NCBI GenBank assembly: GCA_030062745.1
Contig: CP099839.1
Span: 16,864,733-16,928,732 of the forward strand
From: Capitulum mitella
Taxonomy: Eukaryota > Arthropoda > Thecostraca > Pollicipedomorpha > Pollicipedidae
Direction of reading: 5' to 3'
Length of the DNA: 64,000 bases
The position numbers were made by a program, and so were the translations under genes. Shown here piece by piece: positions 11,323-40,616 of this stretch. The notes beneath the pieces are model-generated. The model did no database searches. It saw nothing but the letters and a program-made list of their open reading frames with translations, and was not told where the DNA came from. Every line of letters begins with the position of its first letter. The stretch's first letter is position 1.

Positions 11323-12645
11323 TTAACCCGCGCAGTGGAAGGGGGTTTCGCGCTAACGCGCATTGGAAGGGAGGCACAAAAGTGCCCCCCCCTCCGATCT
11401 CGGAAATGGGAAGAGCTAGAGACGTGGATTTGTATGGACAGGGTGGGGCTATAAAGATTTACATTGTGTGCAATTTTCCATGATCCTAGGATTCTAGGTG
11501 TCTTCAATGTCAAATGGGATCGAAAAGGTCACTTTTGTACACTTTCTCGGCTCGTATAGGCCATTCCGTACAACTTTTCGAACGAAACGGGAAAAGGATG
11601 TTTGTTTGAGCTTTCAAACGTGGAATACGACAACTTGCATTCATCTGACGTCTTGACTGAGGATTTCGGACCGAGGTCATCAGGTCATTGCCCTATGCCG
11701 TCATTTTCCCATCTTTTGCAGATCAGATTTCGAGACACTGGACAGCTTGAGTGTAAATGTGGGCGCTACAAGCATCTTTTGGCGTATTTTCAGTGAAGGT
11801 AGCCAACATCGGTACATTTGATCACTTCCAGCCTTCATATTTATGTATGTATATATATGTATACGTGTATATACATATGAATATCAATGCGTGAACCGTG
11901 TTTTATTAGGGTCTTTGAATACATGTATCATACAAATCGACATATTGCAAAGCAAATCTAGACAAGGCCACAAAATAGTTACCCCTGACCTTTGGAGACC
12001 TTGACCTGCTCTGACCATGGTATATATAAGCGTATCCATGTGGGCATATGTGTTTTCATCAGGGTCTGTGAATGCATATTTCATACAAATCGACATGTCG
12101 CAAAGCAAATCTGGACGAGGTCACAAGATATTTGACCTTGGCCTTTAATGACCTTGTCCTTCACTGACCCTGGGGTATGTAAGCGTATCAGTGCGCGCAC
12201 GTGTTTTCATTAGGGTCTTTGAATGCATGTTTCATACAAACCGACATATTGCAAAGCAAATCTGGATCAGGTCACAAGCTGGTTGACCTTGACCTTTGAC
12301 GACCTTGCCTCTTGTTGCCCCTAGCTTTGGTCTTGATATATCCATCACTTATGCCCGAATGACGTCGCCTGGTTGTGTTGAAACGGTTATCTTAAGTAGA
12401 ACGCTAGTCCTTTTACAAAGTTCCGATCTGTCAGCGACAACCATTATTTTCGTTATGTTTGCTTCACTTCAAATGCTTCGAACTTCAGAAAACTGCGTCC
12501 GATTTTCAATTTTCTGCACCAATCGACGAGACATTCAATCGCCATAAATGTCGCAAAGTAGCAGCAACCAGCTCCGATCATTTCTCGAGATTTTCAAGAA
12601 AAGCAGGCAGGGGTACAAGAAATCCCCGTGCAGTGCGCGTGTTAA
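11323..12645 (+). mobile_element. R1a: TTAA element, family R1, nested inside a LINE
   Basis: The left end is TTAACCCGCGCAGTGGAAGG and the right end CAGTGCGCGTGTTAA, about 20 bp of imperfect terminal inverted repeat with TTAA at both outer edges. Removing the element and one TTAA restores the minus-strand LINE reading frame, which fixes the boundaries and the target duplication. The interior has no transposase. It has a tandem block of about 160 bp (roughly 11900-12300) built round GCAAAGCAAATCTGGA and CAGGTCACAA, followed by TTGACCTTGACC. DR0 site TGACCTTGACCT is at 12284-12295. Confidence 0.92.
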
Positions 12646-13004
12646 AGAGATTTTACCAAAGCTGGTCCGGAAATTGGCGGCCTTTCTGAATAATGCAGAC
12701 GGTCCAACCAGGGTCATACCGTTTCTTTTTAAAGGTTGGCTTTCAGCGCCTTGGATCTGAACCACGTCAGCAGCGTAGCCTGATCGCTTTCCACAATTCG
12801 CTCCAGGTCAAGAAACCCTGTCTGGGTTGGTGGTGCGCTGTGCAGGAGAAAGAAAACATCGGAGTAAAACACTATTTTGCAACTGTCAGACAGGTGTCTC
12901 GCGAGGTCGTTAGTAAACGTGTTGAAGAGTATTGGGCCGATCGTGCTCCCCTTGGAACACACCAATTTCTTCTCCCCTTCCTTCTCTACCTTGTGTGAAG
13001 TCAT
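12646..13004 (-). pseudogene. LINE reverse-transcriptase relic, palm region
   Basis: The minus frame 13004-12729 contains KGSTIGPILFNTFTNDLA, which matches the QGSxLGPLLFxxFINDL motif of non-LTR reverse transcriptases. It is followed by CKIVFYSDVFFLLHS at the position of the catalytic Y/F-A-D-D motif. The second catalytic aspartate is lost, since YSDV stands where YADD is expected, and the frame breaks after LTWFRSKALKAN. The sequence then continues in a second frame through RKAANFRTSFGKISL to the R1a insertion point. Confidence 0.82.
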
Positions 13005-14885
13005 GGGTTGTCTGCATTAGCCTATCATGACCTTACAGCACAAATCGCCCGCTATCGGCTATCTCACACAGTTAGGAGTGGATGCAAACTACGTAAAAGT
13101 AAAATCATAAAACATCATTGTCCTCATGACGTCATGTTGACATGACATTGACTTTTACGACATCATGATAACCTTCAAAAATAGCCAGTGTTTCGAGTTG
13201 ATGTATCTAGGGTTACTGAAAATCTGACCACGCTGTGCCGTTTTGTTTACGGAGTTACGTCACCTAAAAAGACGGGTGCGTCTGGTGCCTTCCCCCTCAG
13301 CAAGTCGTGGGCGAATTTTGAATGTCATCTCGTGTTAAGTACGTGGAGGAAACTTTTTTGCCCTAGGCATGTGACGTCTTCCAGATGACCCAACTTAACC
13401 CGAGAGGCGTATTTAATATCGGGTCTGGGACGCTCAACGCCGAACCCCACCGGCCTGCGGGTCCGACTTTCATCGAAGACAAAGCCGTCCTTTTTGGCAG
13501 AGTTAAAGATTCAACCATCTTCATATATTTTTCTTGTATGACTTCTTCTTTGAAACCAATGAAAAACCTCGGTTCCGTTGATATCCACATCACGGAGCAA
13601 CAAAGGCCTTTCCATGTGCCATGACTAACACAATGAGACAAAGCAAACGTCCCGACCAAGTACGTCTGGCTTAAAAAAAAGCAGCTAGAGAACTCAGCCA
13701 AAAAGGCCCACTCTCTCTCGGAGTTCCGCTGATAAACTTCGTTCCTGATAGGGCATTTCGAGGCAGCTCCGCCACAGCCAGGGCCTCGGTTCTACAGGCC
13801 TCCACAGCCACAAAATCGGCTGCGCCGCTCCTGCCACAGCCGTACTCCCAGTGATACCGCTCCTGCTGCAGCTGCTCCCGACTGTCGGCGGTTGGCATTC
13901 TTATTTATGATGCCCCCTTGCAAGGGACAACAAGACGTCAGACTTAGGGCGTCAGGTCGGTCACGTCACAACAGATGACGTCCCGAGCGGTGTCGTCCAG
14001 CGGGAGACGTTCGTGGTGGTCGGACGTCAGAGTGACGGTATCAGGTCAGTGACGGTCCCCTGGCTGCTGGCGTCCGGCGTGGCGTCATTGCCAATACGGC
14101 GGGAGACGTCTGCGGAGTGACAGCTGACCCCTGGTCGGCTCCGGCCGTGGCTGTCTGAGTCACCGGGACGGGGCCTTCGGCTAATGAGATCTGACCGCAG
14201 TGCTGGCAGGATGCACCTCCATGCCAGCGCTGACGCATTCCAAAAGGCACAGGTAGTACGTGTTATTGGCTAATCGCAACTCCAAAAAACAAAACGCTGG
14301 ACGCACAAAAGCTGTAGCCAGCTTACCGTGGTTAAGTCTAATCACCAGCGCAAATATGAGTAAACGGAAAGACGTATTAGACGGCCGCAGAAATTAGTCA
14401 CTTGATCTGACACAAGCGGGAGGTCAGATTTGCCAGTGTGTCGTCCCCGTCGAGTTGCAAGGTGTGCACAACACCAGTGCCGCGCGGCGCTCGGAGCCTT
14501 CGGGGCCGTGCCAGGCCGGTACGACGCACGTCGACCTCGGACGGAGCCCGCCGGTGCTGACAGTCACCTAAAGCGGCCGCGAGGCTCGCTCGTTTGCATT
14601 CAGGCGTGCCGGCCACGTCATCAGCAGTGGCCAAAATGGCCGCCCTATTGGCATACGATGTGGCTGACTAGCTGCGAAGGGCTGAGCTCGAGAGGACGTC
14701 TGAGGAGCGAACGAATTATGGCGCACGGAAAACACATCGTCCAAGACCAATTCTTCGTTAAAATTATCTCGATAATTGGGCAAAACTTGGGAGACTCGCG
14801 GAAAGTTTGCTGTCATGGAGCTACACCTCAAAAGTGGCAGCCGTCATTACTTTTTACGAAAACGATTTGGAAGCTATCGCTTGCA
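13005..14885. other. Intergenic stretch with GC-rich part, no gene assigned
   Basis: 13005-13900 is mixed. About 13920-14660 is GC- and CpG-rich and repeatedly contains GACGTC/GACGTCA-like words. Open frames on both strands in the GC-rich part (for instance plus 14430-14945) have no recognised domain. It could be a promoter or untranslated exon. Confidence 0.35.
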
Positions 14886-16426
14886 CTAAAGCTTGGCCGG
14901 AGGGGGGGGGGTCATGAGAAACCCCCACCAGTTTTCTTAGGATAAGCAAAAAAACGGAAAGGGGAAGGCAAGGACATCAAAGGACATCAAAGACAGCAAA
15001 AACATCAAGAACAAGAATGGCAGCGACATCAAACTTAGTACATCTTCTTCTACGTCCTTTTTACACCCTGTGTCAATTTTCAAATTACGGGTCCCCTCAG
15101 GCCGTTGATCTATTTCAGGTGAAGTACGGCCATGTTCCAAAAGAATCCAAGTGGCATAACTTTTCGTTAAATGTGTCGATGAACATCAACCTTGCCACAT
15201 TTGTAGAACATGACAAATGGAATCATTCAGCTAACTCGGTTTCTTGTCGGAAATGTTCAGGTCATTGACCTTAGGTCAGCTAAGCTTCCGGCCATTTACG
15301 TTTGCTATTGAGATTGTGTGTCCGGTTTGGCTGTTTTGAGGCCTGAATATACGTTCTGGTGCTTTTTATGTTCTTTGGACGCGTAAATGTACCTCTTGAC
15401 CTGTGGTTTGGGGCCAGTTTTACGCTTTATATCAACGTTTCGGTCATTCATCCGAATATAAGTCATCGACTGGAACGTTTATTGGTGGTCATATGTGTTT
15501 CGGAACTACTAATATTTTCCAAGAACCTACTCGCCATGGGAGTTTGATTTCATCCAGGCTGACCTGATTTGACCTTTTGAAAAAATTTGTTTTTCATTGG
15601 CTTTGCATGAACACAGAAGATAAGAAATATACCCAACCCTTCTTTACACAGTTTTTTCTCCCCAACCCTCTTTTTGGCTGCCAAAATAAAAATCGTTAAC
15701 ATGGCGAAAATGGCTTCTTAACAAATATTTGCCAAGTAAAACAATGCTGTCGTGCCCCCTGCCCGGCATCTGTGTGACTTACGTGCAAAATGTTTTGTGG
15801 CGCATTTTTCAAGATGCAGAAGGGGTATTATATAAACTGATGTTATACCTAGGATTTCATGACGTATCGTGTCTCATTGACGGTGATCAGGCAGATGATG
15901 TGGCAGATATCAGAAGCGAGCGACGTAGTGATGTCATTACCTTGATCTAAGCTGACCTTATTGCATTTTAATATGTTAGTTGCAGCCTTTATGCGTACAA
16001 ATATTTTCGGCACATTCAAACGAAAAGACATCAGTACTGATTCAGAAAAAAACGTTATTCTTGCCCGTACAAAAGTTCGATTTCCTCTCGTTTTCAGCTT
16101 TGTTTAAATTGACCAGCCTTTGACCTAAGTTGCCTATTTTACTGCTAAGCCCTTTGGAGCCACGTGGAAACCTTGGTTATACATTTTCTCGCTAAAATGT
16201 CGAAATGGAAACTTGACCTGAGATAACTCCCTGAGACCGCAATATTGGCCTTATTGGAAAAACGTGATTTCTTTCTTCTAGTTTTGCTAAGGGCGTTCAT
16301 CAGTTTTATACTTTTGGTGTGATTTTTAGTTTTCAAAATCTTGGGAGGGGGTCTCAAGAACCTCCGATGAATCATTGCAAAACAGAACAGCACTTTGGAG
16401 GAGTTCAGCACAGCGTGAGGGCATTA
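14886..16426 (+). mobile_element. R4b: TTAA-type element, family R4, worn ends
   Basis: Near the left edge CTAA is followed by GGCCGGAGGGGGGGGGGTCATG and AGAAACCCCC, the same subterminal design as R4a. At the right edge GGGAGGGGGTCTCAAGAACC precedes GTGAGGGCATTAA. The interior resembles R4a, with dispersed AGGTCA/TGACCT words (for example 15260-15280, 15560-15575 and 15945-15955). No transposase is seen. Both TTAA edges are mutated or approximate, so coordinates are uncertain by tens of bases. Confidence 0.5.
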
Positions 16427-17109
16427 AGGCACGCTGTTCCGTGGATTAGGGAATATAAGGATAGATTTATATAAGGATAGGGGAATATAAGGATAGATTT
16501 CAGCATTACTCATTCTCGTGAAAGAGCCTTGTCCTTTGTGGTGTGTTAAGTGCGTGTGTGTGAGCGATATTGTTCTGCTAAGCCATCGGTTGTTGGTAAA
16601 GGCTGAAACGTTTTGATGGAATAGTATGACATAAAAAGGCCAGAATATGGGAAAAGAGCGCATACATCTCAAAATATTCCGCAAAGAGTGACAGGAGTAC
16701 TGTGACAGCCAACAGGCGTGGCCAAATGCTAGGGGACCGGCCCCGAACCTTATCCTGAGCTGAGACAGATCAGGCGCTCCATAGATCAAACATAACCGTG
16801 CCCGCTTCGTTTGTTATTCCGACACGTTGTCTGTGAGTAAGGAGAGGCAGCGTGCAAGGCGGATGGAGATGATGGAGTTAAGACAGCCTATCAGCACGAG
16901 GGAAATTTCAGGACACATGTGCTGTCCTGAACCTGCGCCGTTCCCGGGGATCGTCACGCCACGCGCCGGATAACGTACGGTGACGGCCGCGGCGACGGCC
17001 ACTGTGACTGCCGTGCCGACGTCACCTGTGACAGCGCAGGCGTGTCTCGCGCGCTAATGTTAGGAAAACACAGACCAGCTTGCTGCTCGCAGCTCGCCGT
17101 CGGCTGAGC
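16427..17109. other. Spacer, GC-rich towards its end
   Basis: Contains a short near-tandem duplication, GGGGAATATAAGGATAGATT, at about 16447-16500. From about 16930 the DNA becomes GC- and CpG-rich (GTGACGGCCGCGGCGACGGCC) and leads into the 31-bp repeat. No gene is recognised. Confidence 0.4.
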
Positions 17110-17245
17110 CGCCTCAGCTCGAGTCGGGCCGCTGGAGAGCTGCCTCAGCTCGGGCCAGACCGCTGGAGAGCCGCCTCAGCTCGTGCCGGGCCGCTGGAGA
17201 GCCGCCTCAGCTCGAGTCGGGCCACTGGAGAGCCGCCTCGGAGAG
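17110..17245. repeat. 31-bp GC-rich tandem repeat, about 4 copies
   Basis: Four consecutive units start at 17121, 17152, 17183 and 17214. Each has the core GGGCCGCTGGAGAGCCGCCT and ends CAGCTC in the first three. The period is 31 bases, not a multiple of three, so the open frames across it are unlikely to be protein. It lies in a CpG-rich island of about 16930-17560. Confidence 0.93.
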
Positions 17246-18406
17246 CGGTGGCGGCCGTCAGGGAGCAGCGCCGGCCGTCGGGGACCGGCCAGGCGCCGTC
17301 GGCGCGCGGTGGACCCGGCTGGCGGGCGCTCGGCCGCAGCCGCCGCCGTCGGCCGGTCGGGTCAGGGCAAGGTGCCAACGTAACCACGGCGGCGGTGGCA
17401 CGAAGGCGCTAGTCGGGTGCCGGCCGCTGCAGGAGGTGCACGTCCGCGGCTGACTGAGGTCGCCGTGTCGCCGCTGTGAAATGTAGGTGACGGAGGCGGC
17501 AGGCGCCGTCCCGGTCTCTAAGATAACACGAGCCTCCGACGCCGTCACAGTTTACCGCCAATGAGCCAACGCTGCTGGCGGCGCACACTAACGCAACGGG
17601 CTCTGATGTCTCTGCCCTGTATATAGCCACGTTTTGCTGTCCAGTCGGTGAATGTGTTTTTGCTAGTGTCTAGCAGTTTGTTGTGGACGCATGACGTAGA
17701 TTTTAAAATCATGCGGTCCACAAATTTATATGCTTTCATTGTAGATTAGGTTTTTTGGATTGTAACAACTTTTCTGCATGATAGCTGAACAATGATGAAC
17801 TCTGTTTTCCAGCATCATTTGTATTCGACATTGCGTTCACAGCTTGGAGGACGCGGCCAGTAAGTTATATTCTAGAAGGTTTGAATACAGTGTCCTAACG
17901 CGTTAATCTACAGTTTATTTTTTATTTCAGACTATGCCATTTATTTGTTGGGCTAAACTGCGTATTCACTGACCCCATGAACTTTTGCTATGAGCATCTT
18001 ATAAAATGCACGCAATAGAGTACCGCTGGAATGAGTTCTTTATGGATGTTTTGCTCGGAATTCTCGCTTCTCATACATTCATAGACGCATCCTTTCGTTT
18101 CGTTGGCCTTTACATTTCTCTGGAACAGCAAATCAAGAGAAGGAGTTTATCATCATCAAGTATGATGATAATTGCGCTTTTTGCGGCGTTTCGGCTACTG
18201 CGGCTATTTCGCATTTCGTCGTTAAGCCTGCGGGAGGTGTTAAAAATGTGATGTCCGACACAGAGAAGCTTAAAAATAACTTTTGGAAATTAAATAACTG
18301 CATGGAGATTCTGGTTGATGCATGTCCCTGCCTATGGTCCATGAGAAAGGGTCCAAATTGTGCCGCCTTCGTTTGCTTGATTACGCATTTATCATACCTG
18401 GCTGAG
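17246..18406. other. CpG-rich island tail and AT-rich spacer
   Basis: 17246-17560 continues the CpG-rich island, rich in CGGCCG/CGCCGTC words, which may be a promoter or untranslated exon; neither a start codon nor strand can be assigned. From 17560 to 18406 the DNA is AT-rich and has no recognised feature. Confidence 0.35.
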
Positions 18407-18480
18407 AGAAAAAGAAGCCTGGGACGTAGCCAAGGGGGCATATGGCCGTGTTGCCCTGGCTACGTCCTAGGTTTCTTTCT
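18407..18480. repeat. Inverted repeat, potential hairpin
   Basis: The left arm 18407-18435 and right arm 18454-18480 are near-perfect reverse complements sharing the core GGACGTAGCCA. The loop is about 18 bases. Both arms continue into A-rich/T-rich ends (AGAAAAAGAA versus TTTCTTTCT). It may be a foldback remnant of a dispersed repeat, since part of one arm recurs at about 8216, or a transcribed hairpin. Confidence 0.85.
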
Positions 18481-18907
18481 CTGCGCACGAGTATAGAATA
18501 GTGATCATATATATGCTGCGAAAGCAAACAATGTTTTTCTGTGCGTTAAAGATGAAGTAAGTTACTTAAAACTACTGCTTTTCCCCACAGATTTTGTCAT
18601 TTGCTAGTGGCATGTGACAAAATTCGACATGCCCCCCACCCCCAGGAAAATCCTGGCTTTATGCCTGAGAGGAGCACGAGTCTTCGTGCCATTGGCTGCA
18701 TGGGACAGGTTCACGTTTATTTTCATTTCTTTAGAACTGGTAATATCAAGGCTCCAACTCTTGCCCCCACAATCAGTCTTATATCAAAAGAAGTTGTAAC
18801 TTCACCCATACGCCCTTCGGTGACCCATACAAAAACGAACAAATAAAAACCGGACAGAAGACAAAGAGAAAGAAAGAAACATGGATAGGTAGGGACTAGA
18901 AAGCATA

Positions 18908-19061
<154 letters not shown>

Positions 19062-19085
19062 GAATAAATGCCATGAAATGGGATG

Positions 19086-19859
19086 TTAACACGCACACTG
19101 GAAGGCGGGTCTTTTTCTGCTCCCCACCTGTTTTTCTTGAAAATCTCGAGAAATGATCGGAGCTGGTTGCTGCTACTTTGGAATATTTATGGCAATTGAC
19201 TACCTCGTCGACTGACGCGGAAAAATCGAAAATTGGCCGGAAAATGTTGAAATTTCAAGCATTTCAAGCCAAACAATTATAACGAAAATAACCGTTGTCG
19301 CTGACAAATGAGAACTTTGTGGAACGACAAGCATTCTACCTAAGATTACCGTTTGAACACAATAAGGCGACATCGCTCGAGCATAAGTGATGGGTGTACC
19401 AAGACTAAAGACAAGCTCAGAAAGAGTCAAGGTCATCAAAGGCCAAGGTCAATCAGCTTGTGACCTGACCCAGAATTGCTTTGCAAGATGCCGGTTTGTA
19501 TAAAATATACATTCAAAGGCCCTAATAAAAACACGTGTGCACACATGGATACGTTTATAAATACCAGGGTCAGCAAAGGTCAAGGTCATCGAAGGCCAAG
19601 GGGAAATTTGCGTTCTGATCCAGATTTGCTTTGCGACATGTCGATTTGTATGAAATTTAGATTCACAGGCCCTAATAAAAACACGTGTGCGCACATGGAT
19701 ACGCTTATATATACCAGGGCCAGTACAGGTCAAGGTCACTAAAGGTCGGGGGTAACATTTTGTGGCCTTGTCCATATTTGCTTTGCAATATGTCGATTTG
19801 TATGAAATATGCAATCAAAGACCCCCCTAAAACACGTTTGACACATTGATGTTCCTATG

Positions 19860-19899
<40 letters not shown>

Positions 19900-20600
19900 G
19901 AATATACATGAATATATATACATATATAAACGTATAATTCTTACGTTTTATAGTGCTCAGACTTTGTAATTGGGTTCATTATAACGAAACAACTTCAGCG
20001 CAGACAGTTGAAATAAAACTTACTTTGAATAAGAAACTTCATCCAAGGTCAATGGTCGTGCTTGACTGCTTTTGACCTTGCGAAGATTAGTAAACGCTGG
20101 AAGTGAGCAAATGTACCGGTGCTGGCTACCTTCGTTGGAAATACGCCAAAAGATGCTTGTAGCGCCTTTATTTACACCAAGCTATCCCTTGTTGCTGGAA
20201 ATCTGATCTGCCAAAGATGAAAAAATGGTGTCATAGGTCAATGAACTGACGTGAACTTGACCCGAGATCCGCAGTCAAGACGCCAAATAAATACAAATTG
20301 TCGTATTCCACGTTTCAACGCTCAAACAAACACCATTTTCCCGTTTCGTTCGAAAAGTCGTACGGAATAGGCCTGTACGGGCCGAGAAAGTGTCAAAAGT
20401 TGACATTTTCCACCCCATTTGGCCTAGAAAGCATTGACCTAGGGTCGAGACAATCACAAGCAATGTAAATCGTTAAGGCCCCACCCTATCCATAAAATAT
20501 CATTTTTCTAGCTCTTTCCGTTTGGGAGATCAGAGGCGGCACTTTTGTGCCCGTTTCCAGTGCGCGTTAGTGCGAAACCCCCTTCTACTGCGCGTATTAA
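19086..20600 (-). mobile_element. R1d: TTAA element, family R1, inverted
   Basis: It begins TTAACACGCACACTGGAAGG and ends CTACTGCGCGTATTAA, the reverse of R1a, so it is a full-length copy in the opposite orientation. The 160-bp internal block appears about three times (near 19420-19500, 19580-19660 and 19730-19800) and a TA microsatellite (19859-19896) has grown inside, which explains its greater length. DR0 sites AGGTCAAGGTCA lie at 19577-19588 and 19727-19738. No transposase is present. Confidence 0.9.
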
Positions 20601-22536: not shown

Positions 22537-23745
22537 TTAACCCTATTCCCGGCAGGGGGGACGGAATCCGCCCCCCCCCTCGGGTTTTTTGCTTGCCAAT
22601 TCCAGGCTTTTTAACGCAGCTTTACGAAACTTGGTGACTTTTCCTGGCTATTCTTTCTACGTGCTGTGACAAAATTTCAAAATTCTATTTTGCTCAGGGG
22701 CGGAGCCAGGCAACGTTTTTGGGAGGCACCTCGTGCCATGTTAAGGGTAAAAGGAAAATGTCTCCCAAAAACAGAGTTTTAAAGCTAGAACTTAAAACTT
22801 TATATGGATGTATAGCTAAATAGTTGGGCAATGTGCAGATATAATTTTGTTTATCTGAGGTCATTTTACAAGGTCAGATCAAGGTCAAAAGTCAAAATTT
22901 GTTGTTTTGCTATAATTTCGGCGCCATTTTTTCAAATGCCAAACCCGGAATATATATGACGTAGAAAAGTACCCTCTGCTTGTGTATTAAGTTTCAGCTT
23001 GATATCGGGTCGGGTCACGGAGATATGACCGAAAATGTCAGTGCGCGTACCCTATATCGCAATAGCCAAAAAATGAAATTTTTGAAATAGAGTGAATTCA
23101 AGTGATTGAAAACGTTTACGGATAATATTAAATGCACACGAGATCATTCCAAGTGACCCCAAGGTCACTGGAGGTCATTTAAGGTCAAAGGTCACAAGTT
23201 GATCTGAGAAACGTGTGACCGTGACAGTTTCCCTTTTTTCATATCCCTGGCACCGCCTATGCTAACATTATACAAACATTGTTAATGCGATTTGTACTTC
23301 TTTAGTATAACATGACTAGCGGAAGCCAAAAAAGGGTGTTTGCCTCTTTTGTTCATTCGTTTGTTAGAAAACTAATCCTTCTATTTTTGAAACCCTGTGA
23401 ACGCCCATGAATTTTCTCAAAATTTCACATTTGCGGACTAATGGTAAAAGCCCTATCCATAATCTCTCGATTGATGCCAGTTCCATCGAAATCAGTCCAT
23501 AAACAACGGAGTTATAAGAAGTCCAAAAGTACCCCCATTTTGACCTTTTTGCCCCCCTGTATCCACAAATTTTGAAATTTTGGAAATTTCTTTTTATAAA
23601 AATGTAGTTCACGTCACGGCGAATCGATTGCCGTTTATTGCGATGAAATCAGACAAGTAGTTCTCAAGATCTCAGGGGGGGGGGCCGAATCCGCCCCCCT
23701 GCCGGGAATCGACCATACCGTCTAGCCCTCCGGGAATAGGGTTAA
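22537..23745 (+). mobile_element. R2b: TTAA element, family R2, best-preserved ends
   Basis: The left end TTAACCCTATTCCCGG and right end CCGGGAATAGGGTTAA are perfect 16-base inverted repeats that include the TTAA. G-rich (22554-22561) and C-rich (23690-23700) subterminal blocks follow. The interior is colinear with R2a and R2c, and no transposase is present. Half-sites such as AGGTCAAAGGTCA (about 23183-23195) occur. It ends only 15 bases before R1b. Confidence 0.93.
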
Positions 23746-23760
23746 TAATGCGTATATGCC

Positions 23761-24903
23761 TTAACTCGTGCAGTGGCAGAGGGTTTCGCGCTAACGCACA
23801 GGAAGTGGCTCGGAAACAGAAAGAGCTAGAGACATGAAATTTTGTGGACAGAGTAGGGCTACAACTATTTACATTGTGTGCAACTTTCGGGACCCTAGAT
23901 CATTATCTTCAAGTTCAAACGGGGTCGAAAATGGCAACTTTGGACACTTTCTCTGCTCGTCCAGGCCATTCCGCTCAACTTTCCAAACGAAACGGGAAAA
24001 TGGTGTTTGTTTGAACATTTAAACGTGGAATACGACAATGTCCATTTATCTGACGTCTTCACGGAGGATATTGGGTCGATGTCATGTCAGGTCATTGACC
24101 TATGTCGTCATTTTTCATCTTTTTCAGATCAGATTTCGAGCAACACGGGGCAGCTTGAGTGTAATTGAAGGCGCTACAAGCATCTTTTGGCGTATTTTCA
24201 GTGAAGGTAGCCAGCAGCGGTACATTTGGTCACTTCCAGCCTTCATATTCATGTATTTATGCACATGTATGTGTATATACCTATGAGTATAATGTGGCAA
24301 ACGTGTTTTTAGTAGGGTCTTTGAATGCATATTTCATACAAATCGACAAATTGCGAAGCAAATCTGGACCAGGTCACAAAAAAGTTACCCTTGACCTTTG
24401 ATGGCCTTGACCTGTACTGACCCTAGTATATCAAAGCGTACCCATGTAGGCACACGTGTTTTTATTAAGGTCTCTGAATGCATATTTCATACAAACCGGC
24501 ATGTTGCAAAACAAATCTGGATCAGGTCACAGGCTGGTTGACCTTGACCTTTGATGACCTTGACCCTTATTGACCCTGACTATGGTCTTGGTACATCCTT
24601 TACTTATGCCCGAATGACGTCGCCTGATTGGGTTCAAGCGGTAATCGTAGGTAGAACGTTAGTCCTTTCACAATGTTCCCATTTGCCAGCGACAAACGTT
24701 ATTTTCCCTATGTTTGCCTGACTTCAAATGTTCGAAACTTCAGAAATTTCCAGCCGATTTTCAATTTTCCTGCGTCAATTGATGAGTTATTCAATTGCCG
24801 TAAATGGCACAAAGTAGCAGCAACTAGCTCCCATCCTTTCTCGAGAGATTTTCAAGAAAAGCAGTAGGGGCACAAAAAGACCCCATTCCAGTACGCGTGT
24901 TAA
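23761..24903 (+). mobile_element. R1b: TTAA element, family R1
   Basis: It begins TTAACTCGTGCAGTGGCAG and ends CAGTACGCGTGTTAA, with the R1 interior in the same order as R1a. DR0 site TGACCTTGACCT is at 24539-24550. No transposase is present. Only 15 bases separate it from R2b, so two TTAA families landed side by side. Confidence 0.9.
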
Positions 24904-27719: not shown

Positions 27720-28995
27720 TTAACCCGCCCCGACGGGGGGAGGGGCGGGTGGCGGTTGACCGCCCTCCTGAGGTTTTTCCAAGACTGCGTGAGAATGAAC
27801 GGACGTAGGGCCACGAAACTTCGCGTACCTTTTGCTTGATGATTTTTACACCTTATGTCAAAGTCTGAATGTCAGGTCACGTCAGGTGTCTGACCTAGGT
27901 CAGATCAGTCGGACCTACGTGCAAACAAGTTCATCGCCCTGTACCTTTTTTGAAAACATATCACGATAATACTTTCAGGAATTATTACTTTCAGGGATTT
28001 AACTGATTTCAAGGATTGAAGGACTACAATAATGCTTTTAGGAATTAGCGATATTAATAGATGCAACAAATCTGTTATCTCATATTTTTCGGAATTTTCC
28101 GGGACATTGACCTAAGATCAAACCCATTCTTGGGACTTGTCTCCATTTGGAAATTGACGGAATTTTTCAAAACATTTTTTTGTGGGGTGATGCAGCCATC
28201 GAGCTGCCGTCAACGGGCAAAGTATCAATGACTTCCAGCCATCGACCTGAGGTCAGATCATGAATATCTGTTACGAGCCAAAACGCACCACCGTCAAAAT
28301 CGGCGACAAGTTACGCGGAACGGGTAAAGAAATGACAGAACTGGCTCTCACAGTTGCAAGTCATACCAAGAAACTCAAAAAGTTTCAAAAATCGTATATT
28401 TTGGAAATAAACAGGCTCTCGCGAATAAAGCTCCGCCAGTTGTATAAACTGATAACTATTGAATTTTTGCAAAATGTGAGCGTGGGAAATTACCAAAAGA
28501 ACCACTAGGACCAATAAATATGACATGGAAAGGCTTATGCCGCTTAAATAAAGGAACGCTCAAATAAGTCCCTGGTAATTTTATAACGCGTTCGGCCACG
28601 GCTCCCCGCCGGCAGTCGGCGCGAAAATCGTCGCGTCTTTGACTCGACGTTTCGGCGTATATATTGAACAAATCAAAGAAATTAGGCGGGTATCGGCATC
28701 TGCGGACTTCCGCCTGTTCGTTGGCGCTTTTACCTAGACTTTATTCATCACAGCCCTTGAGAGCCAGGCCGTCCCTCAGTTTCAAGCAGACTATTAGAAA
28801 ACAGATATAGGGCGTAAATGGCTTACATTTTATCCAGTACCAAAAATAAGGTCAGTTTCGAGCTGTACTCGTCACGAGCTTCCCAACGGTGTGCTTATTT
28901 TTATCGTCCAGCCAGCCGTTTGCTAGTCAGAGGGGGGCGGTCAACCTCCCTCGGTCGAACGTAATCGGCGCTGACTGCCGGTCGGGCGCGGCTAA
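27720..28995 (+). mobile_element. R3a: TTAA element, family R3
   Basis: It starts TTAACCCGCCCCGACGGGGG and ends TGCCGGTCGGGCGCGGCTAA, with the right TTAA mutated to CTAA. Its interior matches the copies at 37.6 (inverted), 44.3 and 45.6 kb. Subterminal G-rich and C-rich blocks flank a core with many AGGTCA words (27874-27905, 28250-28256). No transposase is present. Confidence 0.88.
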
Positions 28996-32932: not shown

Positions 32933-32953
32933 ATGCCTACGGAAAATATTGCT
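32933..32953 (+). CDS. Possible first coding exon of the WH2 gene (tentative)
   Basis: CCCACCATG is a good translation-start context. Seven codons (MPTENIA) run straight into GTGAGT, a strong 5' splice donor. It stands at the edge of a CpG-rich island (32960-33340) 0.7 kb upstream of the first clear exon, where a promoter or first exon is expected. Against it: it would end in phase 0, while exon A needs two bases from the previous exon, so another exon must lie between or this start is wrong. The reading frame continues openly past the donor to 33148, which may equally be chance. Confidence 0.25.
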
Positions 32954-33635
32954 GTGAGTTCCCAACGGCCGGCGACAAGGCGCGTTCGCCTGCGGGGCGG
33001 GTCTGACTGCGCGGGCCCGTTTTTACCGGGCGGCCTCCGCCCGGCCACTATTCTTGGTCGCATCAAACATCACGGCGGAGACGGAGCCGGGCAGCGAGCC
33101 AGGTTCGCCGGCGGTCAGCGCGTCCGTCAGGGCCGGGCCGGACTCTGACGTCACGGCGAAACACGCCGCGGTCACGTCACCGCGGCCAGTGGGAGGAGCT
33201 GTCGGCGTGTCATAACAAGCTCTGGTCTGATCAAGCGGCCAGCACCGCCTAACCGTGCTCCGAACTCGCGGTGGGTTTTGGCTGCAGGAGGTCGCGAGCC
33301 TGGCCGCCAAATTTCTGTCCGAGCTGCAGTCCGGCGTGGGATGATGGGCAACACTGATCTGAAATATCAGCTGAGTGGTGACTACGTAATAGTGCAACCG
33401 TGGGGGTTCATGAGATCAATGAATCCCAGGACATGGGAGGATTTATGAATTGTTTTACGTAATGCAGCGGAACGAGCACATTGTTATTACTTACGGTGAT
33501 TTTTAAACACAGTTTTGAGACAAATCTGTATGGATTATTTCATGTCAACATTAGGCGCTGGATGCAGCGGGGCAAGAACAAAACGAAGCGTCATTCCAAA
33601 TGGAGCTGATCTGACACATACGCCAATCTTTTCAG
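32954..33635. promoter_or_regulatory. CpG-rich island upstream of the WH2 gene
   Basis: 32960-33340 is strongly GC- and CpG-rich, with open frames on both strands but no recognised domain. It directly precedes the first confident exon and may be a promoter, 5' untranslated region or first intron. 33400-33635 is AT-rich and ends in the pyrimidine-rich acceptor TCTTTTCAG. Confidence 0.3.
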
Positions 33636-34175
33636 GGCTTCCATCAACAGCTATAGGTCGCGCTATTCGAACGCGCCAGCGTTCGAGGCAGAGCCGAAGA
33701 AGCTCCCTGTCGTCGAACAGCCGGGCTCGGCCAAGCCCGAGTCGAGCTCCGAGGAGGAGACCGAGACCTCCTCGGAGGAAGAAAGCTCCTCAGAGGAGGA
33801 CGAGGCGACAGGGAAAGACTCTGGGAGGAAGGCAAGCTCGCCGGAGAGCGGCGACGAGGACAGCGAGTCCGAGTCGGCCGGGCGGCCGGCCCGGGTCAAC
33901 GGAGCGCGCCAGTCCTCCTCGGAGGAGGATTCGAGCGAGGAGGAGTCGAGCGGCGCCGAGTCGCGGGAGCCGGCGGCTGCGCGTCGGCGGTCGGGCGCAG
34001 CCGTCATGCCCGGCGGCGAGGACGTGCCGTGGCGACGGCCGAATCTGCGGAAGGTTGGCAGGAAGAACGCCGTGGGCAAGCAGTCGTCGTCGGAGCTGCC
34101 TCCCTGGGCCGAGGACGCCAAGAAGCGGCTCGGCGATGTTCCCCTGCCTCTGCAGAAACAAGACACCGTCGAGAG
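33636..34175 (+). CDS. WH2 gene exon A: acidic Ser/Glu-rich segment with Pro-x-Trp motifs
   Basis: The acceptor TCTTTTCAG and donor GAGAG|GTCAGT bound 540 bases; one leading base, then 179 codons, two trailing bases. The segment starts ASINSYRSRY and is dominated by SSEEE/ESSSEED runs with Arg patches (typical casein-kinase-2-like acidic clusters), then basic RRPNLRKVGRKN and PPWAEDAKKRL near its end. GC-rich third positions contrast with the flanking DNA. The region is expected to be disordered. The antisense frames are shadows of this repetitive composition. No ATG that could start the protein is evident upstream in frame before the stop at 33607. Confidence 0.78.
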
Positions 34176-34454
34176 GTCAGTCATGGGGGCGGGCCAGTCT
34201 CAGCCAGGCCAGTTTGTCACGATGCTGGCGAAAAAAGCAGTCGCTCTTTTGCGTCCTTTGCGACCAGATTCGGACCTGTTGTTTAGTTGTACGCATGTGG
34301 TAGTTAGTATCGTGTGACAACATGATGGCAGACGGCATGCTGGCGATAATAATAATTCCATGCCCAGTACATTCCAGACATGTGCCGGCACCCTGCTGTG
34401 CACGTTGGCCCGGGGACTGCCGTTGTCGTGCACGTGACCGACGTGTGTCGGCAG

Positions 34455-34675
34455 CCGGCCGGCCTGGGCCGCCCGGCGAGTGGACGTGGACCGGCTGGAT
34501 GAACTGGAGCGCCGACACCAGGAGAAGATCCCAGCCACCCCCGCACAGCCCGAGTGGACCGTCCGCAAACTGGACGCGGCCACCCTCGGGAGGCTGGAAC
34601 GAGCGCACAAGCTGGACAAGCTGGCCAGCTTCGACAAGACGCCACCGGAGTGGGCCGACCGGCGAAGGTCGCTAG
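34455..34675 (+). CDS. WH2 gene exon B: three Pro-x-Trp motifs
   Basis: The acceptor GTCGGCAG at 34454 gives one base that completes the codon split after exon A (phase agrees). The frame then reads RPAWAARRVDVDRLDEL, QPEWTVRKLD and PPEWADRRRSL, with helical charged sequence between them (LERRHQEK, LERAHKLDKLASF). The donor is CTAG|GTGAGT. The intron that follows is only 53 bases, and using this strong donor leaves one base whereas exon C needs two, so either the weaker donor at 34669 (GTCGCT) is used or the sequence has an indel. The frame is convincing up to about 34668. Confidence 0.75.
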
Positions 34676-34728
34676 GTGAGTGCTGTCCGGCCGACGGTGA
34701 CGGAACACGTGCTGCCCGCTGCTGGCAG

Positions 34729-34970
34729 GTCGCGCCGGAGCGGATCGGACGCCGGCAGCTCGGAATCGGAGGGCGCCGTCCGACGCCGCCAGTCGGTGGA
34801 CAAGATGGACTGGATGAAGGAAAAGATGTTGAGGGACGCCGCGGGCAGGAGGCCACCGCCGCCGCCGCCGCCGCCGCCGCCCGCCTTGCCCGGCGGGTTC
34901 AAGTCGAAGGACTCCGAGGAGTCCAGCTCGGAAGAAGAGGATGACGAGGAGTCCGAGGACACCGAAGAAG
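34729..34970 (+). CDS. WH2 gene exon C: first polyproline stretch and acidic tract
   Basis: The acceptor GCTGCTGGCAG precedes a frame reading RSRRSGSDAGSSESEGAVR, then VDKMDWMKEKMLRDAAG, ten or so prolines, ALPGGFKSKD and the acidic run EESSSEEEDDEESEDTEE. Polyproline followed by LPG is a plausible profilin/SH3-binding segment by analogy with other actin regulators. The donor is GAAG|GTCAAT (moderate). It leaves one base, which exon D completes correctly. The open frame in the other + frame (to 34944) is a shadow that continues from exon B through the small intron. Confidence 0.75.
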
Positions 34971-36093
34971 GTCAATAAGCACAGCATGGGTCGAGAGTAG
35001 CTGACTGAGAAAATAGGCGCTGATGGCATGCAGTTTGGTCAAGAGGTGACTGTAAGCGTGAAGTAGAAACGCCGTCCACAAGAGCGAAGCGCATCTTCCA
35101 TGTTGTTTTTGCTTCTCCTCGAAGTCGTCAAGATCGCTAGAAGATACATTCGCCGACAACTGCGAATGAGTGAGCATGTGATTGAACTGCGAACCAGTTC
35201 TGCAGCAAAACAAGCAGTTTTGGTATAGACATCAAGAGTGTGATGTTATTTCTAGCGCATGAAACGATCGTTGTACACCCGTTGAAAGTAAAGCCACTCG
35301 CACGTCAACGTAAAATCGTAAAACAAAATTTGCTCGTTCTGATTATGTTAAGAAGGCAACTTTAAGCCAATAGGAATTGTCTCTGTCACTCTGCAGTGTC
35401 GCAATGATGATCACGAGCTGCTACGCATGTAAACCTGCTTTGGTGTCCTGTATCATTCTTAACGACGATTCCGTTGTTGCAAACTCTTTTAAAATTCGTC
35501 GAAAGTCACCAGTCGCTGACCGTTTCTGTCCTACCGTCCACCGTGACGTTATATCCGCAAACCAAGTAATCCGCAGACCAAGCAGACCAAGCACTTCCAG
35601 GATGGCCAGCAACACGGGTCATTGCTTTCATTCTGTAATGTGCATAAGTTAAGCAGAAATGTCACCTCTTCATTGCTCCGTATTCTGCAGTCTCTGCAGT
35701 CTCTGCAGTCAGTTCGTTCAGACCGGCACAGATTGCCTTCGACGATTTTGTTGCCACCTGTTTTATATGGTTGTTCGGACGTTGAAACCTTGAAGTGGTT
35801 TGAAACCTACATGCCACATGTTGCACAAATGTAACGCGTTTTTCGCTTTAAATGTAACAGCTTCTTTAAAATGCGTAGCATTAGCGTTCATAACTATGCA
35901 GTTAAAATGAGGCATGCTGGATGTCGAGCATTACATATTATTTGGCGTCTTGTGTCTTGTGTCCAAATGCTGTAGTCGTGGTCTCCCTTTAGAGAACGTT
36001 CGTGACGTCCCAACGTGCAAATTCAGCACTGTGCGCGTTTCGCATGTTTCCAAAGGTTCACAGATGTCAAAATGAATCTGCGCTAACCAACAG

Positions 36094-36261
36094 GTCCTCC
36101 AGATTTCAGCAAACTGCAGCAGCTCGAGTCCAAGGCCAGAGCAAATGAGGCGGCGCCAGAGCCCAAACCCTCGCCGTGGGAGTCGGTCAAGCTGGTGCCT
36201 CCTCCCCCGCCGCCTCCCCCTCCTCCCGCCTCCCGCTTACCGCCGCCGCCGCCACTGCCAG
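36094..36261 (+). CDS. WH2 gene exon D: second polyproline stretch
   Basis: The acceptor AACCAACAG gives GT plus codons reading PPDFSKLQQLESKARANEAA, then KPSPWESVKLV, ten prolines, ASRL, five prolines and LPG. The phase agrees with exon C. The donor is CCAG|GTAGAT. If unspliced, the frame runs 11 more codons to a TAA at about 36294, which could be an alternative end. One base is left at the donor, but exon E supplies only one, so an unseen small exon or a sequencing indel lies between D and E. Confidence 0.75.
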
Positions 36262-36978
36262 GTAGATCGACGTCACTGTCCAGCGAGAGTGGCTAACAGT
36301 GGTCTCGTGTACTAATTTCATGGTATGCGGGACCAAATACAATGACAGATCGTGACTCCTTTGATTGCCTAAAATCATGTTCTTAGCGGCACCTTTTTGT
36401 AACATGGTCCGCCTTTCCTGTTGAAGTGTGCCCATTTTCCACGTTACGTGCATGCTCGTGCAATGCGCTAAAAAGACGTATTACAAGAATGACGGAGGCA
36501 TGCAGCAGATGAGGCAGCTGCATTGACCACACGAAGAATGGTAACTCAACTCTTTGCTCGGCCAAATAACCTGGTTGCTGAGAGTTGCAGGGTTCCAGAG
36601 GACCCTCTGGGCGCGTTAATGAAAACTACCATTTTCCCAGTTGCTAAAACCCATGCGTGCTCTGTTCCTACTAGCTGAACAGTGGCCCTGCAATCGTCTC
36701 AGCACTTGTGTTCGGTTATGTGAAATCATCATCCCCAACGGCTTGCTCATCAGCGAGGAACAAATCCGACAAAGCGTGTACCGTTATCTTTATGGTTATG
36801 ATTTGGCCGTCTTCTTAAAATTTTAGAACTCGTGAAGGTATGTGCCAACGTCAGCATTGGGAAAGGCCCAGTGTTTTAAGTCCTTCATAAATGGAAGTTT
36901 AAATGTTACGCGTGTTTCTTAATTACGTGACGGGCTGTGTTCCATCCCGGGCCGGTATCTGCTCATCGTTTAATGTAG

Positions 36979-37198
36979 GGCTGAGAGTGACCGCACATAC
37001 CGACGGTCGGCAGACAAGGCTCCGCTAACGTCCTCCCAGCTGGAGAAGCTGGAGCGGCTGAGGAGGACGCCGCGCCGCCGGCCCGACTGGAGCGACATGA
37101 TGAAGGAGATCAGACAGCCTACACATGGACTGCGCCACGTCCAGTGCAAGGACCGCAGCGCGCCCATCATCCACGGCCTGAAACGGCGCGGCAGTGAG
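36979..37198 (+). CDS. WH2 gene exon E: first WH2 motif
   Basis: The acceptor TTAATGTAG is followed by one base and the frame AESDRTYRRSADKAPLTSSQ, LEKLERLRRTPRRRPDW, then SDMMKEIRQPTHGLRHVQC and KDRSAPIIHGLKRRGSE. The last part fits the WH2 pattern: an amphipathic helix (MMKEIR), a short linker, L-R-H-V in place of LKKT/V, and the basic K-D-R-S-A-P tail. WH2 motifs bind the barbed-end cleft of actin monomers. The linker QPTHG is slightly longer than in exon F. Ending at GAG|GTTGGT (37198) gives phase 0, which fits exon F; GCA|GTGAGG at 37193 is a stronger donor but gives the wrong phase. Confidence 0.8.
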
Positions 37199-37215
37199 GT
37201 TGGTGTACAGCGATA

Positions 37216-37575
37216 GATTCTTCATCTACGACCAGAAGCAGCGAGGTAGCCAGGTCATTGGCACGGCTGTAGTTTTCTATCTATTTGTGGGGGCTGCGGC
37301 ACCCCCAATATTAATAGGGCACCCACTGATTTATGAATTTAATATGGGACCATGGGGGGTAGGAACCCACAACAATCTGAAACTTCCAAGATCACGCATA
37401 GGCGAGCACCCTAAATCTATTTCAGGAATGTAGTTACTGACAAAAATTCCAAAAAGTTGCATTTTTGGTCTATGCTGCACCTATCCTTCATCCAGGACCT
37501 GAAACTGCGGGAAACTAATGCCAACGGTGTATCCTTCATCCACGACCTGAAACGACAGGGTGGTCGGATCAGTGG
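37216..37575 (+). repeat. Degenerate copies of the end of exon E
   Basis: Just downstream of exon E are three related stretches encoding FFIYDQKQRGS (37219-37251), SFIQDLKLRE (about 37483-37513) and SFIHDLKRQGG (about 37531-37564). They resemble PIIHGLKRRG at the end of exon E in DNA as well (TCATCCACGACCTGAAACG versus TCATCCACGGCCTGAAACG). A fourth, non-coding echo lies at about 38818-38863, on the other side of the R3c insertion. They may be decayed duplicated exon ends or alternative exons. Confidence 0.6.
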
Positions 37576-37581
37576 TATATA

Positions 37582-38811
37582 TTAACCCGCGCACGACCGT
37601 CGGCCCGTTTCGAACATCGGCGACTGGGGGGGGGGCAGTTGGCCGCCCCCCCCCCTAACTCACGAATGGTTCGTCGCAAGATAAAAATAAGCATACCGTT
37701 TGGAAGGCTTGTGACGAGTAGAGCTCGAAACTGGTCTCATTTTTTTAGTTTTAGATAATATGTAAGCAATGTACGCCCTGTTTATCTTTTCTCATAACCG
37801 ATTGCATGAGACCGAGAAATGGCCTGAATCTCAAGGGCTGTCACCAATAACGCCTAGGTAAAGCCACCAGCGCACAAGTAAAGGTCCGCGGATGCTGATA
37901 CACGTCTAATTTCCCCAGATTTGTTCAATATATACGCCGAAACGTTGAGTTAAAGACACGGCAATTCTCCCGCCAGCTGTCGGAGTGCGCCGCTGCCGTA
38001 TGCAGCACCAAATTGACCGGAACTAATTTTAGCGTTCCTTTATTTTCGCAAAAAAAGCCCATCTATGTAAATTTTATTGATCTTAGTGATTCCTGTCATG
38101 GTTTTTCATGCTTAAAATTCAGAAAAATTAATTAGTTACCAATTTACACAATTGGCGTAACTTTATTCGCGAGAGCCTGTTTATTTCAAAAATATGCAAT
38201 TTTCCAGACTTTTTGAGGTTCCTGGTATTACTTACGTCTGTGCAAGCAAGTTATTCCATTTGCTACCCATTCTGAGTAATTCATCGTCGATTTCGACGGT
38301 GGTACATTTTGGCTCACTACAGTTATTCGTGACATGACCCCAGGTCAATGGCTGGAAGTCGTTGATATTTTGCCCAATGACGGCAACTAGATGCCTGCTT
38401 CACTCCACACTAAAAATGTTATGAAATAGTCCGTCAATTTCCGGATAAACGACGATATGTCTTAAAAATGGGCTTGACCTTGGGTCAATGGCTTGGAAAC
38501 TTCCGAAAAATCTGAGATAGCAGATTTGTTGCATCTATCACGATCACTATTCCCTGAAAGTATTATTGAGATATCTTGTTTTGCAAAAAAGTTAGACGGC
38601 GCTAAATTTTTTTTGGACATAGGTCTGTTTGTCCTGACCTAGGTCAGGCACCTGACCTGACCTGAGGTCAAAATTTTGACACGAGATATACAATTGATGA
38701 AGCAAAAGCTACACGAAGTTTCGTGGCTCTGTGTTTGTTCGTTCTCTCGCAATCCCAGAAAAACTTTAGGGGGGGGGCAATTAACTGCCCTCCCAGTCGG
38801 GGACGGGTTAA
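37582..38811 (-). mobile_element. R3c: TTAA element, family R3, inverted, in the E-F intron
   Basis: TTAACCCGCGCACGACCGTC at the left and GTCGGGGACGGGTTAA at the right form the inverted termini, both with intact TTAA. The interior is the reverse complement of R3a. A G/C homopolymer pair lies near each end (37627-37655, 38769-38778). It contains the everted pair TGACCT-G-AGGTCA at 38658-38670. No transposase is present. It has split the array of exon-E-like copies. Confidence 0.9.
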
Positions 38812-39530
38812 CGCTTATCTGAGAAGCTGAAACGGACAGGTGGTTTAGACATTAGTGTATGACCCACCATGTGAGCACTAGACCTGAAAGGACCGGCTCA
38901 AATAGCCATGAATCGGGATCAGTCCGTTAGCATGCCAAAAGTGCCGCCAGTAAGAATGATGCATGCAAGATCGTGACAGGCGGAAAATATGGAGTGAGGT
39001 GATACAAGATGATTCGAGGCATATGATCCAGCCACGGGTGCGATGTCAGCATCTCTGTTCCCAAGTTTGGGGCCACGTCGTGCGTTCCAGCGTCTTGCGG
39101 CTAGCCGAAGAAACAATGGTTTAAAATTGATACGAGAGGTTGCGCCACCTTCGGTATTCTTGCACAGGCCCACGGCGACTGATGTACACGGTCATGTCTC
39201 GTGATCAGGGGCGTTATCGTTGGCGCTCGGCTCACAAGTGGACGGTGATGAAGGTGGAGCGATAGTGTTTGGCACTGAACGACATGCCACTGAATGACGT
39301 GACACTTCCGGCGTTGTGGGCGTAGTCGTCCCTTTTTTCCTGGGATGCAGACATTTCCCGCAAATTGTCACAGACCTTCTTTCTCCAGGGCAAAGAGCCA
39401 CAGTGTGCAAGCCAACTGCACATAATACATCACGCTTATGATCTGTTGAACCTCGATCATCCTGCTGAACTCGGCTCATGGGATACGTGAATACATGCAG
39501 GCACGTAAATGCGGCCTGGTAGTCAAACTT
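38812..39530. other. Intron spacer, no feature beyond a repeat echo
   Basis: Part of the long E-F intron. It starts with the fourth exon-E-like echo (38818-38863); the rest has only short, unrecognised open frames. Confidence 0.4.
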
Positions 39531-40616
39531 TTTACCCGCGCAGTGGAAGGGGGTTTCGCGCTGAAGCGCACTGGAATGGGGGGACACAAAAGTTCCTCAC
39601 TTCCGATCTCGGAAACGGAAAGAACGACAGACATGAGGTTTTGTGGACAGGGTGGGACCATTACGATTTACATTGTGTGCAATTTTCATGACCCTAAGTC
39701 AATATCTTCAAGGCCAAGTGGGCTCGATAAGGTCAACTTTGGGCACTTTCTCGGCCCTTACAGGCCATTCCGTACGACTTTTCGGACGAAACGAGAAAAA
39801 GGGCGTTTGTCGGGTCGTTAAAACGTGGAATATGACAATTTCCATTCATTTGTCGTCTAATCTGAGGATTTCAGGTTGAGGTCATGTCGGGTCGTTGACC
39901 TATTGCGTCATTTTTTTATCTTTTGCAGGTCAGATTTCTTGACATGGGATAGTTTGAGTGTAGATAAGGGCGCTACACGCATCTTTGCCCTGGTATGCAT
40001 TTATGGGTATCATTGTGCGCACACGTGTTTTTATTAAGGTTTTTGAATGCATAAATCATACGAATCGACATGTCGCAAAGTAAATCTGGACCAGGTCACA
40101 AGAATTTTGACCTTGACCTTTAATGACCTTGGCCTTCACTGACCCTGGTATATGTAAGCTTATTAGTGTGCGCACACGTGTTTTCATTAGGGTCTTTGAA
40201 CGCATATTTCATACAAACCGACATGTTGCAAAGCAAATCTGGATCAGGTCACAAGCTGGTTGACCTTGTCCCTTACTGACCCTGACTTTGGTCTTGATAC
40301 ATCCATCAGCTGTGCCCGAATGAATGAATGTGTTCAAATGGTAGAACGCTAGTCTTAGGTAGAACGCTAGTCCTTTCACAAAGTTCCCATTTGTCTGAGA
40401 CAACCGTTGTTTTCTTTATGTTTGCCGGTCTTCGAATGCTTGAAACTGGAAAAATTTCCCGCCGATTTTCGATTTTTCTGCGTCAGTCGACGAGTTATCA
40501 AATTACCATAAATGTCACGAAGTAGCAGCAACCAACCCCAATCCGATCTTGAGATTTTGAAGAAAAATAGGTGGGGGGGGGGGTACAAAAAGACTCCCTT
40601 CCAGTGTGCGTGCTAA
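39531..40616 (+). mobile_element. R1c: TTAA element, family R1, worn ends
   Basis: The left end reads TTTACCCGCGCAGTGGAAGG and the right end CCAGTGTGCGTGCTAA, so both TTAA edges have one change. The interior follows R1a closely but has lost one internal block. DR0 site TGACCTTGACCT is at 40108-40119. A G homopolymer lies at 40571-40583. No transposase is present. Confidence 0.88.

What the first reader, a model, noticed from the sequence alone, without database searches (positions are those of the whole stretch)
11323..40616. Nuclear-receptor DR0 sites preserved in every R1 copy
All four R1 copies contain TGACCTTGACCT or its complement AGGTCAAGGTCA, at 12284-12295, 19577-19588, 19727-19738, 24539-24550 and 40108-40119. 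This is a direct repeat with no spacer and includes TCAAGGTCA, the extended half-site recognised by NR5A/FTZ-F1 and ERR-type receptors; DR0 is the known site of NR6A/GCNF. A mobile family carrying such sites could spread receptor-responsive elements, or exploit germline receptors to be expressed or moved.
Basis: partly seen in the sequence, partly recalled or inferred. Interest (0 to 1): 0.8.

Follow-up and report, generated by a model that had tools for sequence, protein, structure and literature searches.

The report
Receptor half-sites spread by mobile DNA
The five receptor-like sites are really there, inside a small mobile element that occurs many times in this arthropod genome, but in that element they are wearing away like the DNA around them; the wider pattern, several different mobile elements carrying clusters of the same six-letter site, is real and still unexplained.

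Summary
"Preserved" does not hold. R1 is a TTAA-flanked miniature transposon (1.1-1.5 kb) with a central array of ~150-bp monomers. Each monomer has two slots for the 12-mer, and the five hits fall in different slots and monomers. In 68 monomers from 26 elements motif columns vary as much as the rest (permutation P 0.66, 0.84, 0.65). Genome-wide, a motif 16-mer (1,356) is scarcer than two matched R1 controls (1,803; 1,533). The wider picture is more interesting. The 12-mer occurs 11,793 times genome-wide against 176 for the reversed string, mainly in another TTAA element, R2 (22 of the first 30 hits). AGGTCA is among the most over-represented hexamers, concentrated in repeats. R2's four-half-site block is intact more often than three same-mask controls (4,427 v 1,145, 2,746, 1,690), which hints at constraint there.

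The parts
11323..12645 (+). R1 copy a: TTAA-flanked element, three ~150-bp monomers in the centre
   Evidence: Ends and TIR (17 of 22 match); tandem array; monomers
19086..20600 (-). R1 copy b, three monomers
   Evidence: Ends and TIR (15 of 22); array; monomers
23761..24903 (+). R1 copy c, two monomers
   Evidence: Ends and TIR (14 of 22); array; monomers
39531..40616 (+). R1 copy d, two monomers; TTAA degenerate at both ends (TTTA, CTAA)
   Evidence: Ends and TIR (17 of 22); monomers
12284..12295 (+). TGACCTTGACCT, slot 1 of the last monomer of copy a
19577..19588 (-). TGACCTTGACCT, slot 2 of the second monomer of copy b
19727..19738 (-). TGACCTTGACCT, slot 2 of the first monomer of copy b
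24539..24550 (+). TGACCTTGACCT, slot 1 of the last monomer of copy c
40108..40119 (+). TGACCTTGACCT, slot 1 of the first of two monomers of copy d
3040..4227 (+). R2 copy, TTAA-flanked MITE with two half-site clusters (decayed)
22537..23745 (+). R2 copy; half-site clusters at 22858-22887 and 23162-23194
54032..55244 (+). R2 copy, ends degenerate; half-site clusters at 54362-54385 and 54667-54698
37582..38811 (.). R3 copy, third TTAA element; half-site cluster at 38635-38670 in palindromic arrangement

Best explanation
R1 is a TTAA-flanked miniature transposon without a transposase frame, whose centre is a short tandem array of ~150-bp monomers. Each monomer carries a run of TGACCT half-sites built on a 16-bp sub-repeat. 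The DR0-like 12-mer was part of the founder element, was multiplied by transposition and by the internal array, and has since decayed at the same rate as its surroundings in the inserted copies. Shown: the anatomy, the copy-number scale, decay of the motif at the background rate in R1, AGGTCA clusters in several further repeat families, and above-control intactness of one such cluster in R2. Inferred: movement in trans by a TTAA-specific transposase of this genome. Not shown: any receptor binding or any effect on host genes.
For: TTAA ends and imperfect TIRs in four copies; 150-153-bp arrays in copies a-c and two monomers in d; motif columns no better conserved than other columns in 22, 21 and 25 monomers; motif 16-mer count below both matched controls; few differences between monomer-type consensuses and no shortage of them in motif columns; 118 PF13843 matches; a nested R2 in R1 with duplicated TTAA.
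Against: It does not explain why the same hexamer is clustered in several families or why the R2 block is intact more often than its controls. R1's terminal bases (CCCG, CACG) are not the piggyBac hallmark CC[C/T]T (hallmark from PMC2872659), so the transposase class is open. Decay in dead copies cannot exclude that the site mattered in the active element. The 20 added elements are top matches to copy c's right arm, not a random draw.
Confidence: 0.8

Rival explanations
1. AGGTCA clusters are functional docking sites for the elements: a host nuclear receptor of the FTZ-F1, HR39, ERR or NR6A/HR4 kind binds them, opens chromatin in the germline and helps the TTAA elements to be expressed or mobilised. 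R1 keeps weakened sites, R2 good ones.
For: Clusters in R1, R2, R3 and R4; AGGTCA clusters 20 in 200 kb against at most 4 for any other hexamer of the same letters; R2 block intact 4,427 times against 1,145, 2,746 and 1,690 for same-mask controls; 10 changes against 29.1 context-expected in 20 young R2 copies; receptor domains present.
Against: No excess conservation in R1. In R2 the block test is only P 0.041 in young and 0.133 in older copies, the isolated TGACCT at column 505 shows no reduction (6 v 6.5), and linkers inside the block are also little changed. Mixed spacings and orientations. No occupancy data.
Confidence: 0.15
2. The clusters are an internal cis-signal of the transposition machinery (bound by a transposase or a partner), so active R2 lineages kept them; the receptor match is a coincidence.
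For: R1, R2 and R3 share TTAA ends; R1 and R2 share no similarity stronger than E 0.09 other than at the half-site clusters (best 0.002); coral piggyBac-type MITEs have an internal region better conserved than their TIRs (PMC2872659, passages).
Against: R1's clusters decay like background.
Confidence: 0.15
3. The recurrence is by-product: slippage and array growth of a few ancestral sequences amplified one hexamer, with no function in any family.
For: 16-bp sub-repeats and 150-153-bp tandem monomers in R1; background decay in R1.
Against: The same hexamer is clustered in at least four families, and R3 has palindromic rather than tandem arrangements. R2's above-control intactness is not predicted.
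Confidence: 0.5

Closest known systems
CMITEs, TTAA-flanked MITEs of Acropora corals (PMC2872659; passages seen)
   Same: TTAA duplications, TIRs, internal region of unknown origin, tandem arrays
   Different: CMITEs are about 100 bp, keep the CC[C/T]T end motif, and form arrays of whole elements; R1 is 1.1-1.5 kb with an internal monomer array and other end bases
Non-autonomous elements carrying satellite-like arrays in bivalves (PMC7492417 and others; search listing only)
   Same: Short tandem arrays dispersed inside mobile elements
   Different: The oyster ones are Helentron-borne; R1 has TTAA ends and TIRs
Alu-borne DR2 retinoic-acid response elements of primates (PMC1785376; passages seen)
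   Same: A mobile family disperses receptor direct repeats over a genome
   Different: A retroposed SINE with DR2 arising mostly by CpG deamination; here DNA elements and many spacings
NR6A1/GCNF DR0 site AGGTCAAGGTCA (PMC7724306; passages seen)
   Same: Identical 12-mer
   Different: Mammalian promoter sites with ChIP evidence; sequence identity only here

Membership tests
TTAA-type MITE (R1) | TTAA at both ends | tested here: met
   Intact at both ends in 3 of 4 window copies, degenerate in copy d
TTAA-type MITE (R1) | Terminal inverted repeats | tested here: met
   17, 15, 14 and 17 of 22 bases match
TTAA-type MITE (R1) | Short, no transposase frame | tested here: met
   1.09-1.52 kb; of 23 stop-to-stop frames of 150 aa or more in the window only 18802-19254 (-) overlaps R1, running from the end of copy b into a GA run
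piggyBac superfamily (R1) | Terminal CC[C/T]T motif | tested here: not met
   R1 ends read CCCG/TACG/CTCG on the left and CACG on the right
piggyBac superfamily (R2) | TTAA plus terminal CCCT at both ends | tested here: met
   TTAACCCTATTCCCGG ... and its complement in R2b and in the 12 R2 loci printed, 11 of 12 with full TTAA on the left (L011 has GTAA)
piggyBac superfamily (R1, R2) | Mobilised by a piggyBac transposase | not tested
   118 PF13843 matches exist in the genome; no MITE was linked to one
NR6A/NR5A response element | Sequence AGGTCAAGGTCA / TCAAGGTCA | tested here: met
NR6A/NR5A response element | Better conserved than its surroundings in R1 | tested here: not met
NR6A/NR5A response element | Receptor occupancy and transcriptional effect | not testable with these tools

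The most novel reading that the evidence does not exclude
Clusters of AGGTCA half-sites are a recurrent cis-feature of otherwise dissimilar TTAA MITEs (R1, R2, R3) in this arthropod genome, kept by selection on the active elements in R2, because a host nuclear receptor gives them access to germline chromatin; the elements have thereby spread many thousands of receptor half-site clusters (4,427 intact four-half-site blocks of the R2 pattern alone).
Probability: 0.12. Interest if true: 0.75.

Novelty: new member of a known kind. Interest (0 to 1): 0.38.

Why it matters
If only the R1 result stands it is a clean negative: a receptor-like 12-mer seen in every nearby copy of a repeat is explained by common descent, and it decays at the background rate. 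The wider observation would matter if true: several MITE families in one genome carry dense AGGTCA clusters, and one keeps its cluster intact more often than matched segments. That would make it directly testable whether DNA transposons exploit nuclear receptors and so disperse ready-made response elements, as Alu does with DR2 sites in primates.

Tried and rejected
Rejected: 'DR0 preserved in R1'. Rejected: R1 as a proven piggyBac member (end motif not met). Left aside: relation to bivalve pearl or Helentron elements, only a recalled resemblance. A phrase TTTCATnnAAATC common to R1 and R2 was looked at: 16 in the window against 0-6 for four permuted controls, but 10 in the 200-kb sample against 3-5; no more is made of it. 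A per-copy sign count for R2 (26 of 29 below background) is not used, because zero counts in 24 columns inflate it. Pfam (5 proteins) and PDB (1 protein) searches with window frames found nothing. Paper searches with motif strings gave 36 papers (listing only) and 0 papers. I know of no paper on recurrent AGGTCA clusters in arthropod MITEs, but that rests only on the listings. Passages were seen of PMC8416341, PMC7724306, PMC1785376 and PMC2872659; other papers as search listings.
Full report
Observation. TGACCTTGACCT is present at all five places named, and 16 times with up to one mismatch, against a mean of 0.28 in shuffles. The window lies in a 477-Mb assembly of 16 contigs; there the exact 12-mer occurs 11,793 times (5,938 + 5,855) against 176 for the reversed string, so it is repeat-borne.

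Organism. One frame of the window (52020-53084) has 18 matches, of which 5 bear an organism name, all insects. The number and size of contigs (16; 477.0 Mb; C1 45.5 Mb) resemble the barnacle Capitulum mitella (16 chromosomes; 482.98 Mb; largest 45.43 Mb; PMC8416341, passages). That is a lead, not an identification.

Anatomy of R1. Four copies, 11323-12645 (+), 19086-20600 (-), 23761-24903 (+) and 39531-40616 (+), have TTAA at both ends (degenerate in the last) and imperfect TIRs matching 14-17 of 22. Their centre is an array of two or three ~150-bp monomers, 10 in all. The monomer consensus holds one AGGTCA and then TGACCTTGACCT-TTGA-TGACCTTGACCT, a 16-bp sub-repeat. First, middle and last monomers form three types; the first type's consensus has lost the 5' half-site of slot 1 (TACCCT) and the last type's slot 2 ends in TGACCC. 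So the 12-mer comes from the founder's array, and different slots happen to be intact in different copies.

Conservation test in R1. To avoid choosing copies by the motif, 20 further elements were picked by similarity to the right arm of copy c and the adjoining 480 bp was read. With the four window copies and two from a 20 x 10-kb sample (L032, L041) this gave 26 elements and 68 monomers. Mean mismatch in the 24 motif columns against other non-CpG columns: first type 0.101 v 0.093 (n=22), middle 0.108 v 0.091 (n=21), last 0.087 v 0.081 (n=25); permutation P that columns drawn at random are at least as conserved 0.66, 0.84, 0.65. Slot 1 of the middle type is worse conserved than 99% of 12-column windows. 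The exact 12-mer fills 25 of 136 slots; 20 of 26 elements have at least one (16 of 22 without the window). The best conserved stretch is CATATTTCATACAAAT. Between type consensuses the motif differs at 2, 1 and 3 of 24 columns, against 10 of 126, 8 of 96 and 11 of 96 elsewhere: no sign of earlier constraint, though numbers are small. Genome-wide exact counts of 16-mers common to all three types agree: motif TTTGATGACCTTGACC 1,356, controls GCAAAGCAAATCTGGA 1,803 and GGGTCTTTGAATGCAT 1,533, both of the same G+C and without CpG.

Where the genome's copies of the 12-mer are. Of the first 30 exact hits on contig C1, 22 lie in R2, 3 in R1 and 5 in neither (three of the 5 are one place). R2 is a ~1.2-kb element TTAACCCTATTCCCGG...CCGGGAATAGGGTTAA with clusters of four AGGTCA at alignment columns 337-366 and 641-673. 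In L005 an R2 sits inside an R1 with TTAA on both sides, where R1 itself reads CTTAAG. R1 and R2 share no similarity stronger than E 0.09 except at the half-site clusters (best E 0.002); R1 and R3 share the terminal 12 bases TTAACCCGCGCA. R3 (37582-38811 and relatives) is a third TTAA element, with palindromic half-site clusters; R4 (L035, L039, L042, L026) is a further repeat family whose ends were not found.

The hexamer. In the 20 x 10-kb sample AGGTCA/TGACCT is over-represented (238 v 160.5 expected), second to TATATA, and ranks first after R1 and R2 are masked (197 v 135.9). Density is 3.44 per kb in sequence repeated within the data held and 0.73 per kb in the rest. In that rest the excess is weaker (122 v 89.2, about tenth in rank, and three other hexamers of the same letters are commoner), so the excess belongs mainly to repeats. 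Clusters of at least three within 60 bp number 20, against at most 4 for any other hexamer of the same letters. Repeats were defined only by comparing about 354 kb with itself, so unseen repeats remain in the 'rest'.

R2 as a contrast. In 20 young R2 copies (16 of them chosen by the 12-mer in cluster 1) cluster 2 shows 10 changes against 29.1 expected from trinucleotide context, whereas the isolated TGACCT at column 505 shows 6 against 6.5. The contiguous-block P for cluster 2 is 0.041, and 0.133 in 9 older copies. The same spaced mask at 318 other non-CpG placements of R2 is intact in 23% of young copies on average (95th percentile 50%), against 11 of 20 here. Genome-wide the four-half-site mask is intact 4,427 times, against 1,145 (C1), 2,746 (C2) and 1,690 (C3, GC-matched); in the young sample these controls were intact in 4, 10 and 5 of 20. 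So the block is intact 1.6 to 3.9 times as often as the controls. Against a strong reading: three controls only, chosen by hand; subfamilies are not separated, so a segment shared by more subfamilies counts more; linkers inside the block are also little changed; other families may contribute matches.

Mechanism. Most likely the 12-mer in R1 is passive founder sequence, copied by a TTAA-specific transposase acting in trans (118 PF13843 matches; the link is inferred) and by array growth, then left to decay. Whether the clusters in R1, R2, R3 and R4 reflect receptor use, a transposition signal or by-product is open. That arthropods have FTZ-F1, HR39, ERR and HR4 is recalled knowledge, not a result of these calls; so is the use of TTAA by Kolobok elements, a second possible class for R1.

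Comparison. R1 resembles coral CMITEs in TTAA ends and tandem arrays (PMC2872659, passages) and oyster elements carrying satellite-like arrays (listing). Dispersal of receptor direct repeats by a mobile family is known from Alu (PMC1785376, passages). R1 is therefore a new member of a known kind (a TTAA MITE with an internal array), not filed as piggyBac because the CC[C/T]T end was tested and not met; R2 meets it.

Noticed in passing
window 15259-15278, 27874-27902, 38635-38670, 44436-44469, 44739-44765: Further clusters of three or more AGGTCA half-sites outside R1 and R2, mostly in R3 relatives and with everted or inverted arrangements.
   Followed up: partly
L005: An R2 element inserted in an R1 element at a TTAA, which dates that R2 after that R1.
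   Followed up: yes
R1 monomer, alignment columns about 29-44 (e.g. window 11926-11942): The best conserved part of R1 is CATATTTCATACAAAT, not the receptor motif; R2 has a similar TTTCATCGAAATCGG phrase at 3969, 23481 (one base changed) and 54983.
   Followed up: partly
G000:C1 5,774,839-5,895,377: 13 exact motif 16-mers on one strand within about 120 kb, suggesting a local expansion of R1-like monomers.
   Followed up: no
window 4822-5231: Degenerate tandem array of a ~17-bp unit GGACAAAAGTTCGTC.
   Followed up: no
window 17106-17239: 31-bp GC-rich tandem repeat, 4.3 copies at 88%.
   Followed up: no
window 18908-19060: Long TG and GA dinucleotide runs just outside the right end of R1 copy b.
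   Followed up: no
window 52020-53087: Acidic, coiled-coil-like frame of 355 aa with relatives in insects (18 matches); no Pfam match.
   Followed up: partly
window 62733-63870: Very old R2 relative, 58% identical to the R2 majority row.
   Followed up: no
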